42,628 bases of DNA from a virus. Every line of letters starts with the position of its first letter. Positions within the stretch are counted from its first letter, which is position 1. Below are positions 36,902-39,869 of the stretch, in pieces. Position numbers and translations under genes: made by a program. The notes below the pieces were generated by a model. It worked only from the letters and a program-made list of their open reading frames with translations, searched no databases and had not been told where the DNA came from. The stretch covers positions 1-42,628 of the IMG/VR virus record IMGVR_UViG_3300042806_000100. The stretch is one strand, 5' to 3'.

Positions 36902-36946
36902 AATGTTGGTCTTATATTATAATATACTTAAAAAGTTTAAACTACA

Positions 36947-37136: not shown

Positions 37137-37145
37137 ACCCCTGAC
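37137..37145 (+). promoter_or_regulatory. Cassette motif, variant copy (ACCCCTGAC)
   Basis: One base different from the ACCCCTGAT consensus. It is followed by a 20-nt A/T-rich spacer and the ATG at 37166, the same spacing as the exact copies. Confidence 0.6.
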
Positions 37146-37165
37146 GTACATTAAAAATAAATACT

Positions 37166-37363
37166 ATGGAAAAGATTAATGAATGTACGTGTACATCAGC
37201 TTACTGGTGTTATGATGAGAATCAAATGGAACCTGGGTATACTTGTATGAATTGTAGATTGGAAGAGGAAGCATACTATCAAGAATGTATGGAAGAAGAA
37301 AAGGTATCGGCTATTAGCATACCTGTTGTATCTGTAGAAGAAGATGATGATCTCCCATTTTAG
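37166..37363 (+). CDS. Small Cys-rich early protein with SSB-like acidic tip
   Basis: A 65-aa protein. The first 40 residues hold six cysteines (CTCTSAYWC, then CMNC, then EC), suggesting a small zinc-bound fold. The C-terminus is VSVEEDDDLPF. An acidic stretch ending D-D-x-P-F is the signature of the C-terminal tip of bacterial SSB, which recruits many repair and replication proteins. No OB-fold is present, so this would be a stand-alone mimic of the tip. It is the first plus-strand gene, behind a cassette motif, and its last codons and stop lie in a hairpin (37346-37373). Confidence 0.7.
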   Translation: MEKINECTCTSAYWCYDENQMEPGYTCMNCRLEEEAYYQECMEEEKVSAISIPVVSVEEDDDLPF

Positions 37364-37373
37364 GGGGATTATC
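37346..37373 (+). terminator. Hairpin spanning the stop of the 65-aa gene
   Basis: GATGATCTCCC (37346-37356) pairs with GGGGGATTATC (37363-37373) over 11 bp with two G-U pairs and loop ATTTTA, which contains part of the TAG stop. Only a short T stretch follows, so it may end transcription weakly or protect the 3' end. Confidence 0.5.
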
Positions 37374-37385
37374 ATTTGGTATTCT

Positions 37386-37394
37386 ACCCCTGAT
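37386..37394 (+). promoter_or_regulatory. Cassette motif ACCCCTGAT
   Basis: Exact copy, 12 nt after the preceding hairpin and 19 nt before the ATG at 37414; the spacer is pure A/T except one G. Confidence 0.65.
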
Positions 37395-37413
37395 GTATAT
37401 ATAAATATATATT

Positions 37414-37683
37414 ATGAAACAATTATTAATTATTATGTTATGTATTGCAGCTTACAGCTGTGCTTCTAAGAAGACAAAGTCAGTTGTACCTGTGTGTAAG
37501 CACAATACACCTGGAGCTATTATGATTATCCCATCTGATACAGTGAGTGGTAGACCTACATACACTGTCATCTTTGATGATGAGAAGGCATTAGACCATA
37601 TGTATGGTGAAGAGATAGGTAATAGCTTATCTACTGGTAAATGGGAATATGATGAGGACTTGGTGATTACTACTGAAAAGTAG
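37414..37683 (+). CDS. Small lipoprotein
   Basis: An 89-aa protein with a bacterial lipoprotein signal: MKQLLIIMLCIAAYSCASKK, lipobox AAYSC with Cys16 as the likely lipidated residue. The mature part contains ASKKTKSVVPVCKHNTPGAI and DTVSGRPTYTVIFDDEKAL; no known domain. A phage lipoprotein made early could act at the cell surface, for example in superinfection exclusion, but that is inference. It is a single-gene cassette with motif upstream and a hairpin over its stop. Confidence 0.65.
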   Translation: MKQLLIIMLCIAAYSCASKKTKSVVPVCKHNTPGAIMIIPSDTVSGRPTYTVIFDDEKALDHMYGEEIGNSLSTGKWEYDEDLVITTEK

Positions 37684-37688
37684 TAGTC
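37665..37688 (+). terminator. Hairpin spanning the stop of the 89-aa gene
   Basis: GATTACTACT (37665-37674) pairs with AGTAGTAGTC (37679-37688) over 10 bp around a GAAA tetraloop and includes the TAG stop. There is no T-run, so a processing or stabilising role is as likely as termination. Confidence 0.5.
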
Positions 37689-37704
37689 ATTAAGTTAGAA
37701 TATA

Positions 37705-37713
37705 ACCCCTGAT
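37705..37713 (+). promoter_or_regulatory. Cassette motif ACCCCTGAT
   Basis: Exact copy, 16 nt after the preceding hairpin, 20 nt before the ATG at 37734. Confidence 0.65.
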
Positions 37714-37733
37714 TGTATTTAAAAATAAATAAT

Positions 37734-37973
37734 ATGACTAACATGAATGTAAACAAGAAACCATTTGGTATCAGATTTGAAGGTAACACAGTATGTATGA
37801 AGCTACGCTTTACAAAGGAAAGATTCCTTAAAGCAGAGATAGCTGACTACGGTACACACTTTACTACCAAGTCTGGCCATATCATCTTTGAAGCAGAGCT
37901 ATTAGCTCCTAGTCAAGGATTAGCCGAGCTTCAGAACAAGCTTGACTTATTACGTAATCAACCTGCTAAATAG
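37734..37973 (+). CDS. Unknown small early protein
   Basis: A 79-aa basic protein, MTNMNVNKKPFGIRFEGNTV onward, ending QNKLDLLRNQPAK. An upstream in-frame TTG at 37713 would begin inside the cassette motif; the ATG at 37734 keeps the standard 20-nt spacing and is preferred. It looks like a short beta region followed by a C-terminal helix; no family recognised. Confidence 0.6.
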   Translation: MTNMNVNKKPFGIRFEGNTVCMKLRFTKERFLKAEIADYGTHFTTKSGHIIFEAELLAPSQGLAELQNKLDLLRNQPAK

Positions 37974-37990
37974 TAGGTTGGTTATTTTTT
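37959..37990 (+). terminator. Rho-independent terminator over the stop of the 79-aa gene
   Basis: CAACCT-G-CTA (37959-37968) pairs with TAG-T-AGGTTG (37971-37980), the stop TAG being in the stem, then a T-rich tail with six T at 37985-37990. A good intrinsic terminator. Confidence 0.75.
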
Positions 37991-38010
37991 CTAACACTTA
38001 CGTAGAATTT

Positions 38011-38019
38011 ACCCCTGAT
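38011..38019 (+). promoter_or_regulatory. Cassette motif ACCCCTGAT
   Basis: Exact copy, 20 nt after the preceding terminator's T-run, 21 nt before the ATG at 38041. Confidence 0.65.
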
Positions 38020-38040
38020 ATCATAATAAAATAATTTATT

Positions 38041-38352
38041 ATGCGTAACCAAATTAAACAGCCTTACGGCTACAATTACTTCACTATTGGTACAGTTACC
38101 GTTTACAGTGGTAAAATCCGTGTTAAAGCAGAGAGCAACACATTTGAGAGAATGTGGAACTCCGCTGTGGCACAACACCCTGTAATTATTAGCAACCATA
38201 AGAATAACTGCGTTGCTATTAGTTGGACCACTACTGATTACATAGTACATAACATGTATAGAGAGCTACTTAACGACATACTTGCCTCTATTATGCATGA
38301 GCGTGTAACCAAGAAGTACGCCAAAGAAGTACCGGATTACATATGCCTGTAA
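38041..38352 (+). CDS. Unknown small early protein
   Basis: A 103-aa basic protein, opening MRNQIKQPYGYNYFTIGTVT and ending KKYAKEVPDYICL. Alternating hydrophobic strands in the first half and a helix (HNMYRELLNDILASIMHERV) in the second. No family recognised. An opposite-strand ORF over the same bases lacks a plausible leader and is a shadow. Confidence 0.6.
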   Translation: MRNQIKQPYGYNYFTIGTVTVYSGKIRVKAESNTFERMWNSAVAQHPVIISNHKNNCVAISWTTTDYIVHNMYRELLNDILASIMHERVTKKYAKEVPDYICL

Positions 38353-38360
38353 CCTATTAT

Positions 38361-38387
38361 AGCAGATTGCCTAATAAGCAGTCTGCT
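38361..38387 (+). terminator. Hairpin after the 103-aa gene
   Basis: AGCAGATTGC (38361-38370) pairs with GCAGTCTGCT (38378-38387) over 10 bp (one G-U) around CTAATAA. It lies 8 nt after the stop. No T-run follows, so termination is uncertain. Confidence 0.55.
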
Positions 38388-38404
38388 ATATTATGTAGAA
38401 TTTA

Positions 38405-38413
38405 ACCCCTGAT
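38405..38413 (+). promoter_or_regulatory. Cassette motif ACCCCTGAT
   Basis: Exact copy, 17 nt after the preceding hairpin, 20 nt before the ATG at 38434. GTAGAATTTA just upstream is shared almost exactly with the copy at 38011. Confidence 0.65.
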
Positions 38414-38433
38414 TATATATTAAAATATATAAC

Positions 38434-38682
38434 ATGAAACATTTATTATTATTATTGACAGTTATTACACTGTCTATTAGCAGTTATGCTAAACCAACTC
38501 CTTGTAAAGGGACCACAAAAGCAGGTGTAGCTTGTAAGTCTATTATTGTAGATTCAAAGACAGGCTACTGTAATGCCCACAATCCTAACAGAGTACATTG
38601 CTCTGGTAAGACAAAAGCCGGTAAAAACTGTATGATGACCGTTGGTAAAGGCAGCACTACGTGTAGATTACATGGTAAATAA
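38434..38682 (+). CDS. Secreted protein with two Cys/His repeats (DUF5763-like)
   Basis: An 82-aa protein. Residues 1-19 are a signal peptide (MKHLLLLLTVITLSISSYA, cleavage likely after Ala19). The mature part has two repeats: C24-x9-C34-x11-C46-x2-H49 and C56-x9-C66-x10-C77-x2-H80, each with the TKAGxxC core. This Cys/Cys/Cys/His unit is the DUF5763 type found in small secreted or zinc-binding proteins. Export to the periplasm or cell surface early in infection is the inference. It is a single-gene cassette with a strong terminator. Confidence 0.75.
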   Translation: MKHLLLLLTVITLSISSYAKPTPCKGTTKAGVACKSIIVDSKTGYCNAHNPNRVHCSGKTKAGKNCMMTVGKGSTTCRLHGK

Positions 38683-38689
38683 AGACTAT

Positions 38690-38721
38690 AAGGGAAGCTT
38701 AACAGCTTCTCTTATTTTTTT
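38690..38721 (+). terminator. Rho-independent terminator
   Basis: AAGGGAAGCT (38690-38699) pairs with AGCTTCTCTT (38704-38713) over 10 bp (one G-U) around TAAC, followed by seven T (38715-38721). Confidence 0.85.
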
Positions 38722-38730
38722 GTCTAAATG

Positions 38731-38739
38731 ACCCCTGAT
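38731..38739 (+). promoter_or_regulatory. Cassette motif ACCCCTGAT without an ORF behind it
   Basis: Exact copy 9 nt after a terminator's T-run. No ORF follows; instead a branched structured stretch does, which argues that the motif directs transcription rather than translation. Confidence 0.65.
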
Positions 38740-38889
38740 TTTAAATAGACGAAAGTCCCAAACGTGCAATCAGTGGGAGTCATGACCCAACCATCTACCT
38801 AATGAGAGTTTAATAAACTCAGGTCTTAAAAAGGATGTATTGCACAGTATACAGAAACAGGAGTTTTATTATTTCTCCTGTTTCTTTCC
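38740..38889 (+). ncRNA. Candidate noncoding RNA 1
   Basis: No ORF. Elements in order: GAC-GAAA-GTC hairpin (38748-38757); long-range stem GTGCAAT (38764-38770) with ATTGCAC (38839-38845) enclosing a TGGG..CCCA hairpin and a GAGTTT..AAACTC hairpin inside an ACCT..AGGT stem; then AGAAACAGGAG (38853-38863) with CTCCTGTTTCT (38875-38885), an 11-bp terminator-like hairpin followed by T-rich sequence. The closed multi-branch layout with its own motif upstream supports a discrete RNA. Confidence 0.6.
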
Positions 38890-38946
38890 TCTCATTACTG
38901 CAACCTGCGGTTGTCTCTGCTAACGCAGAACTTCATCCTCTCATTA
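38890..38946 (+). other. Short spacer with two small hairpins
   Basis: AACC-TGC-GGTT and TCTGC-TAAC-GCAGA stems in tandem, bounded by two copies of CCTCTCATTA. They may belong to the 3' end of RNA 1. Confidence 0.35.
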
Positions 38947-38955
38947 ACCCCTGAT
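38947..38955 (+). promoter_or_regulatory. Cassette motif ACCCCTGAT without an ORF behind it
   Basis: Exact copy. Again followed by structured sequence and a terminator rather than a gene. Confidence 0.6.
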
Positions 38956-39045
38956 GTACAACTAGTTAGTAAATAACTACCAAAAAAAGTCTCATTTCCC
39001 CCAAATGAGCATTAAGAACCAAGGCCTAACCGTCTTGGTTCTTTT
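38956..39045 (+). ncRNA. Candidate noncoding RNA 2, about 90 nt or less
   Basis: No ORF. TAGTTA (38973-38978) pairs with TAACTA (38984-38989); CTCATTT-CCCCC-AAATGAG hairpin (38991-39009); then terminator AAGAACCAAG (39014-39023) with CTTGGTTCTT (39034-39043), 10 perfect bp followed by T. Three hairpins and a terminator straight after a cassette motif. Confidence 0.6.
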
Positions 39046-39059
39046 ACACCCTGCATAGA

Positions 39060-39089
39060 CATAATCTGCAGCCTTCGGCTGTTATTATG
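39060..39089 (+). other. Long hairpin before the next cassette
   Basis: CATAAT (39060-39065) with ATTATG (39084-39089) and inner CAGCC-TTC-GGCTG (39069-39081). It lies 9 nt before the next motif, like the hairpins that close the coding cassettes. Confidence 0.55.
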
Positions 39090-39098
39090 CTCTATTTA

Positions 39099-39107
39099 AC
39101 CCCTGAT
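39099..39107 (+). promoter_or_regulatory. Cassette motif ACCCCTGAT
   Basis: Exact copy. The ATG used by the following gene is 41 nt away instead of about 20, the longest spacer of the set. Confidence 0.6.
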
Positions 39108-39148: not shown

Positions 39149-39478
39149 ATGTTACAAGCTAAATTAAACGGTTCTTACCGTAAAGCAAACACCGGTACCA
39201 AAGTATTCAGATTCACCGTTACAGGTTCAGAGAAAGACCTTCAAGCGTATGAAGCCGCACAAGGAGACAGTTTCCGTTTAGATGAAACAACCGGTAAGCC
39301 TTTGTGGTTCACCACTCGTTACACAGGAGACTCTGTTAATTTGATTATCACTTCTAACAACCAAGTTGTTGCTGATGATACTGAACTATCTAAACTACAA
39401 AGTTTAGTAGAGCAGTTTGGCCCAGATGTTGCAAAGCTCGTTCTTATGCAGAAAGCTACTACGCCTAGTGCTGAATAA
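39149..39478 (+). CDS. Conserved-looking small phage protein, unknown
   Basis: A 109-aa protein, MLQAKLNGSYRKANTGTKVF onward, with FRFTVTGSEKDLQAYEAAQG, LWFTTRYTG and a C-terminal helix (LSKLQSLVEQFGPDVAKLVL). I chose the ATG at 39149; an in-frame TTG at 39107 would overlap the cassette motif and give an odd hydrophobic extension. I have the impression of similar proteins in other Bacteroidota phages but know no function. Codon use is more G/C-rich than in neighbours, suggesting strong expression. A strong terminator follows. Confidence 0.68.
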   Translation: MLQAKLNGSYRKANTGTKVFRFTVTGSEKDLQAYEAAQGDSFRLDETTGKPLWFTTRYTGDSVNLIITSNNQVVADDTELSKLQSLVEQFGPDVAKLVLMQKATTPSAE

Positions 39479-39531: not shown

Positions 39532-39646
39532 ATGGCTCTCCATCAGAACAGTCTTCCTAACTGTCCGTCCCTGACGGCCCATTTCCTAACCATCTGCACG
39601 CTTTCAGCGTGTCTTACACACACTTAACTCCCTGATTTACAATCAG
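39532..39646 (+). repeat. Array of five short perfect hairpins
   Basis: In 115 nt without an ORF: ATGG-CTCT-CCAT (39532-39543), ACAGT-CTTCCTA-ACTGT (39548-39564), CCGTC-CCT-GACGG (39565-39577), CACGC-TTTCA-GCGTG (39597-39611) and CTGAT-TTACA-ATCAG (39632-39646). Stems have different sequences, so this is a structural array, not a sequence repeat. The last stem includes a degenerate cassette motif (ACTCCCTGAT, 39627-39636). Confidence 0.55.
39627..39636 (+). promoter_or_regulatory. Degenerate cassette motif (ACTCCCTGAT)
   Basis: One inserted T relative to ACCCCTGAT and a TTAA just before it, as in other copies. No ORF follows; a long structured stretch does. Confidence 0.35.
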
Positions 39647-39690: not shown

Positions 39691-39869
39691 ATCGTATTCT
39701 ACAAAGCTGTTAAACCAGCCAGACGGTTAGCGGATAAGATAGCTATAATTTATATTTATTAAAGATACGATCTGTCTAATCCACAGATAATATGCCCAAT
39801 ATGATGAGAAATGGTTTGATAACCATATGGGTAAGTGTTGTTACTTAGTAACAGCAGGTTGATCACCTG
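39691..39869 (+). ncRNA. Candidate structured RNA 3a
   Basis: No ORF. ATCGTAT (39691-39697) can close on ATACGAT (39765-39771) around a GCTG-TTAAAC-CAGC hairpin. Then ATCTGT-CTAATCC-ACAGAT (39770-39788), ATGGTT-TGAT-AACCAT (39811-39826) within a CCCA..TGGG pairing, GTTGTTAC-TTA-GTAACAGC (39837-39855, one G-U) and CAGGT-TGATC-ACCTG (39855-39869). Neighbouring stems share edge bases, so some compete. Confidence 0.5.

What the first reader, a model, noticed from the sequence alone, without database searches (positions are those of the whole stretch)
37137..39107. A repeated ACCCCTGAT motif starts single-gene cassettes
Seven exact copies (37386, 37705, 38011, 38405, 38731, 38947, 39099) and one single-base variant (37137) lie in 2 kb, all on the plus strand. 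Before five ORFs the distance from motif to ATG is 19, 20, 21, 20 and 20 nt, over pure A/T-rich sequence. Most copies lie 9-30 nt behind a hairpin or terminator. Two copies precede sequence without any ORF, so a translation signal is unlikely and a promoter is likely. It does not look like the Bacteroidota TAnnTTTG/TTG promoter, so it may serve a phage-encoded polymerase or sigma-like factor. I did not notice it in the late block.
Basis: partly seen in the sequence, partly recalled or inferred. Interest (0 to 1): 0.8.

Follow-up and report, generated by a model that had tools for sequence, protein, structure and literature searches.

The report
Repeated early-gene promoter of a phage
A nine-letter DNA word stands, always facing the same way and at nearly the same distance, in front of each small gene or RNA that this environmental crAss-like phage probably switches on first; relatives carry the same word or a uniformly altered version, so it is most likely a phage-specific start signal for transcription, although no experiment has yet shown this.

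Summary
ACCCCTGAT occurs seven times in the window, all on the + strand at the stated positions, against 0.18 expected; the one-base variant at 37137 is also real. None lies in the late block. Five copies sit 19-21 nt before an ATG, one 41 nt before, and two precede structured, ORF-free RNAs. One of those RNAs (RNA1) is conserved in three other phages with compensatory base changes, so the motif marks transcripts, not only coding genes. Two relatives carry orthologous ACCCCTGAT cassettes and differ from each other by exactly one 242-bp cassette. A third has ten copies at the same place, all changed to ACCCTTGAT. Twenty-three copies give ACCCYTGAT-N6-TA. No host-type promoter (TTTG/TAnnTTTG) lies near any copy, whereas the late block starts with a conserved TTTG...TATATTAT element. 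Best reading: an early promoter whose recognition changes in concert, most likely read by the crAss-type virion RNA polymerase that near-complete relatives encode. The polymerase assignment is inference: the window is a fragment without that gene, and most relatives with such a polymerase lack the motif. Kind: new member of a known kind (phage-specific early promoters).

The parts
37137..37145 (+). promoter motif copy 1 (ACCCCTGAC variant); orthologue in L215 and L290 is ACCCCTGAT
37166..37363 (+). cassette 1 gene, 65 aa, ATG 20 nt after motif; orthologues 49% in L215/L290 contigs
37386..37394 (+). promoter motif copy 2
37414..37683 (+). cassette 2 gene, 89 aa, lipoprotein-like N-terminus (sequence reading); 43% homologue in G015 under its own motif copy
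37705..37713 (+). promoter motif copy 3
37734..37973 (+). cassette 3 gene, 79 aa; 36% homologue in G015
37954..37985 (+). terminator-like hairpin plus T-run between cassettes 3 and 4
38011..38019 (+). promoter motif copy 4
38041..38352 (+). cassette 4 gene, 103 aa; homologue is the first cassette in G015 (35%)
38405..38413 (+). promoter motif copy 5
38434..38682 (+). cassette 5 gene, 82 aa, signal-peptide-like N-terminus, Cys/His-rich (zf-primase below cut-off); 52% homologue in G015
38688..38715 (+). terminator-like hairpin plus T-run
38731..38739 (+). promoter motif copy 6, no ORF downstream
38746..38890 (+). RNA1 cassette: conserved structured RNA (core 38760-38848) and terminator-like hairpin 38853-38885
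38947..38955 (+). promoter motif copy 7, no ORF downstream
38962..39046 (+). RNA2 cassette: three hairpins, the last (39014-39043) followed by TTT; fold z -6.4
39099..39107 (+). promoter motif copy 8; positional orthologue of the last copy in G015
39149..39478 (+). cassette 8 gene, 109 aa, 41-nt leader after motif; 64% orthologue in G015

Best explanation
ACCCYTGAT-N6-TA is a phage-specific early promoter element. Shown: each copy heads one short unit (six single genes, two small structured RNAs), mostly behind a hairpin or terminator of the unit before; in relatives the units are gained, lost and reordered with their own copy. Inferred: transcription starts a few bases downstream of the 9-mer, in the A/T-rich spacer near the conserved TA, giving a short leader that ends in the usual Bacteroidota A-rich translation signal. 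Inferred: the reader of the motif enters the cell with the DNA, most likely the crAss-type virion RNA polymerase (given 'promoter', about 0.5), since the units lie where crAss-like early genes lie. The late block on the other strand instead starts with a host-sigma-like element.
For: Seven exact copies, one strand, 2 kb, none elsewhere. Relative G015 (TerL 79%) has ten copies at the same divergent junction, all ACCCTTGAT, most 18-22 nt before an ATG, shuffle mean 0.68. Over 23 copies the T at +7 is kept in 20 and the A at +8 in 18. L290 and L215 are 97.5% identical over 3.8 kb but differ by one whole 242-bp cassette. Two copies precede folded RNAs (z -3.4 and -6.4), one conserved with compensatory changes. 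Hairpins upstream; in G015 some T-runs end 2-12 nt before the motif. No TTTG/TAnnTTTG promoter near any copy, while a conserved TTTG...GTTTAAAC...TATATTAT element starts the late block in many relatives. Near-complete relatives encode DFDxD giants, one matched to phi14:2 gp66 RNA polymerase (6vr4, E 2e-21); sigma families not found.
Against: No transcript data exist for this phage. The window lacks the polymerase gene. Most relatives with 77-84% TerL identity, including large ones that encode the polymerase, have no such motif and no other early-specific motif that I could find, so if the polymerase reads it, its specificity must differ between lineages. The motif-bearing contigs fall in two groups on the TerL tree. 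Several upstream hairpins are weak as terminators.
Confidence: 0.75

Rival explanations
1. The motif is a promoter read by the host RNA polymerase with an alternative (for example ECF-type) sigma factor, so the phage borrows a host regulon signal.
For: Host-type flavobacteria use several alternative sigma motifs (PMC9723704). No phage factor that reads the motif has been identified in the window.
Against: All copies changed together between two related phages, which is easier with a phage-carried reader. No second element at a fixed -35/-10 distance; conserved sequence is one 9-mer plus TA. No CGT box typical of the flavobacterial ECF motif is conserved after it.
Confidence: 0.17
2. The motif acts in RNA: a processing site or leader element in a co-transcribed early mRNA, cut or bound by a phage or host factor.
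For: Fixed distance to ATG in five copies fits any leader element equally well.
Against: Hairpins and T-runs lie between units, so co-transcription would need antitermination. Two copies precede non-coding RNAs.
Confidence: 0.08
3. The motif is mainly a recombination boundary or repressor operator that defines exchangeable single-gene cassettes.
For: One cassette present or absent between near-identical phages with a shared ATGTAG-motif repeat at both ends; cassette order differs between window and G015.
Against: Fixed spacing to the start codon, the conserved TA at +7/+8 and the uniform C-to-T change argue for a reading protein; short repeats could recombine as a by-product.
Confidence: 0.1

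Closest known systems
Early promoters of Thermus phage P23-45 (vRNAP AT-rich and nvRNAP GC-rich motifs; PMC10770324)
   Same: Short conserved motifs repeated before early transcription units, read by phage RNA polymerases of the two-barrel type; relatives without the fused polymerase lack the motif.
   Different: Different phage type and motif; there starts were mapped by cappable-seq, here they are only inferred. Here relatives with the polymerase also lack the motif.
crAss-like phage phi14:2 virion RNA polymerase and early genes (Drobysheva et al. 2021, cited in PMC10136315 and PMC7886860)
   Same: Crassvirales-type layout with early genes opposite to the late block; a near-complete relative of the window encodes a homologue of the solved polymerase.
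   Different: phi14:2 shows no ACCCYTGAT repeat in the parts read (single chance copies); no promoter motif is given in the papers I could read, and the primary paper is not held.
Start-associated sequences (SAS) of cluster K mycobacteriophages (PMC3203893)
   Same: Short asymmetric repeat, mostly in one orientation, before small genes of different families, mostly outside the structural block.
   Different: Different sequence, lies immediately at the start codon, partly paired with inverted repeats; here about 20 nt upstream and also before RNAs.
Bacteroidota primary promoter TTTG/TAnnTTTG
   Same: Expected in a Bacteroidota host; a related element starts the late block.
   Different: Absent at all eight early copies.

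Membership tests
Bacteroidota sigma-A promoter (TTTG / TAnnTTTG) | -7 element TAnnTTTG near the start | tested here: not met
   No TAnnTTTG from about 80 nt upstream to 30 nt downstream of any copy
Bacteroidota sigma-A promoter (TTTG / TAnnTTTG) | -33 TTTG at 17-22 nt from the -7 element | tested here: not met
   No TTTG-N17-22-TAnnTT near any copy
Promoter of a crAss-type virion RNA polymerase | phage encodes the polymerase | tested here: inconclusive
   Met in near-complete relatives; the window is a 42.6 kb fragment without it
Promoter of a crAss-type virion RNA polymerase | motif restricted to early transcription units | tested here: met
   All copies between 37137 and 39107 on the early strand; 'early' rests on layout, not on expression data
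Promoter of a crAss-type virion RNA polymerase | motif shared by relatives with the polymerase | tested here: not met
   G004, G006, G009, G012, G021 have the DFDxD protein but no repeated motif (G004 reaches only 0.8 kb into the early region)
Promoter of a crAss-type virion RNA polymerase | rifampicin-resistant transcription starting at the motif | not testable with these tools
   needs infection and 5'-end mapping
T7-like single-subunit RNA polymerase promoter | phage encodes a T7-like RNA polymerase | tested here: inconclusive
   PF00940 not found in 11 records, but the control also rang nowhere and the records are incomplete
Mycobacteriophage SAS | located immediately at the start codon of genes | tested here: not met
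   19-21 nt upstream; two copies without a gene

The most novel reading that the evidence does not exclude
ACCCYTGAT is the recognition element of a giant crAss-type virion RNA polymerase, whose DNA specificity drifts between related phages so that all early promoters of a lineage change together while the same elements serve as joints for swapping single-gene cassettes and small RNAs.
Probability: 0.37. Interest if true: 0.75.

Novelty: new member of a known kind. Interest (0 to 1): 0.55.

Why it matters
How the crAss-type virion RNA polymerase picks its start sites is not stated in any paper I could read (the primary structural paper is not held). A compact, repeated candidate promoter, with a natural all-copies variant in a relative, would make that directly testable in vitro. 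It also marks which phage genes and small RNAs are probably made first, and shows how such genes are exchanged as units.

Tried and rejected
A weaker shared motif (TAAWCCWTTAAA) upstream of early genes in other relatives looked like an ancestral promoter, but held-out tests gave AUC 0.41-0.49 against late leaders; it reflects the A-rich translation signal at -14 to -11 (PMC6847099). Per-genome motif discovery found a strong outlier only in the window (47 against 22.7 +/- 1.2); G015 was missed there, probably because its motif supplies upstream in-frame ATGs that shift the ORF starts. Broad pattern scans of viral contigs returned mostly single chance hits. Queries with cassette proteins found only the contigs already named plus two distant ones without the motif. 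phi14:2 and Leptolyngbya phage Lbo-JY46 show no such repeat in the parts read; a crAss001 region was fetched but not searched for a motif. Rfam gave nothing credible for the RNAs. Sigma families were absent. Literature searches found no published promoter motif for crAss-like phages, with the primary phi14:2 paper not held.

Full report
What the window is. The window is a 42,628-base virus record. The minus strand, 41-36901, holds the late block: terminase, portal and major head protein match PHROG head-and-packaging families, with about 21-31% identity to crAss-like, Cellulophaga, Flavobacterium and Leptolyngbya phages at the portal. The plus strand from 37137 begins the opposite block of small genes, which is where early genes lie in crAss-like phages (PMC8375218, PMC10136315).

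The observation. Seven exact ACCCCTGAT copies lie on the + strand at the stated positions; shuffles give 0.18. ACCCCTGAC at 37137 is a genuine eighth copy, because the orthologous cassette in L215 and L290 has ACCCCTGAT there. There is no exact copy elsewhere in the window on either strand. Motif-to-ATG gaps are 20, 19, 20, 21, 20 and 41 nt, and the copies at 38731 and 38947 precede no ORF.

Relatives. A TerL search gave many relatives from viral contigs. Contig 3300042555_000963 (L069, G015; TerL 79%) has AACCCTTGAT ten times on one strand, at the same junction between late and early blocks, with one copy of ACCCTTGAT elsewhere on the other strand. Contigs 3300042868_004896 (L215, the same contig as L016) and 3300005662_001488 (L290) carry two and three copies of ACCCCTGAT at the left edge of the same region, where the contigs end. 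Aligned, 23 copies give ACCC[C/T]TGA[T], then T seven bases later in 20 and A next in 18, also in several copies without a gene.

Cassettes. L290 and L215 are 97.5% identical over 3.8 kb but L290 has one extra 242-bp unit, motif to motif, encoding a 56-aa protein. The window has a third, different gene in the same slot. Homologues of five window cassette genes lie in G015 under their own copies but in another order. On the TerL tree the motif-bearing contigs form two groups, so the module or its use is patchy. Units are thus gained, lost and reordered with their own copy of the motif.

RNA units. The stretch after 38731 folds with z -3.4 and that after 38947 with z -6.4, each ending in a strong hairpin with a U-rich tail. 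The core of the first, RNA1, recurs in G015 and in two contigs of 111 and 115 kb with four pairs kept by changes on both sides and no Rfam match. In those other phages it is not headed by the motif. A translation signal would not be expected in front of such RNAs.

Separating the signals. Early and late genes alike have A-rich leaders about 13-11 nt before the ATG, matching the known Flavobacterium translation determinant at -14 to -11 (PMC6847099). The 9-mer is additional and starts 28-30 nt upstream of the five regular ATGs. TAnnTTTG is absent at all copies; by contrast AAATTTG-N-GTTTAAAC-N-TATATTAT heads the late block in the window (36919-36942, minus) and in most relatives examined.

Mechanism. 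Hairpins end 7-32 nt before each copy, and in G015 some T-runs end 2-12 nt before it. Between terminator and gene little remains but the motif, an A/T-rich spacer and the translation signal. The simplest reading is a promoter with a start in the spacer, near the TA. The uniform C-to-T change in ten of ten copies suggests a protein reading the DNA that changed with it, although concerted evolution by recombination among repeats is possible. Near-complete relatives encode giant DFDxD proteins, one of which was compared and matches the phi14:2 virion RNA polymerase (6vr4, E 2e-21). Sigma families were not found. Hence the virion polymerase is the favoured reader, at about even odds given a promoter. 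Against it, several relatives with that polymerase lack the motif.

Known comparators. P23-45 is the closest in kind: phage polymerases are proposed to read short motifs before pre-early and early units, and relatives without the virion polymerase lack the motif (PMC10770324). Mycobacteriophage SAS are the closest in appearance (PMC3203893) but differ in position and sequence.

Verdict. Real and most likely an early promoter set; new member of a known kind, with a good natural experiment in its relatives. Function is inferred from sequence alone and the polymerase assignment is untested.

Noticed in passing
window 38760-38848 +; L118:14744-14832; L308:6591-6690; L306:61-160: RNA1, a conserved structured RNA (core CAGTGGGAGTCATGACCCAACCATCTACC) in four phages, four pairs with compensatory changes, no Rfam family.
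   Followed up: partly
window 39730-39748 + (GCGGATAAGATAGCTATAA): A near-invariant element in the early region of more than ten relatives, often preceded by a short hairpin; function unknown, no Rfam match.
   Followed up: partly
window 36919-36942 -: AAATTTG...GTTTAAAC...TATATTAT at the start of the late block, conserved across most relatives; looks like a host-sigma-type late promoter with a central palindrome.
   Followed up: partly
window 39627-39636 +: ACTCCCTGAT behind a hairpin, possibly a degenerate ninth copy (family D5).
   Followed up: no
L164:3000-7400: A distant relative has a long run of single-gene units whose ATG lies only about 15-25 nt behind a hairpin with CCCTTTTTT (20 copies, one strand), leaving almost no room for a promoter between terminator and gene.
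   Followed up: no
PP438436.1 112152-114749: The annotated portal closest to the window's comes from a cyanobacterial phage (Leptolyngbya phage Lbo-JY46, 31% over 98%).
   Followed up: no
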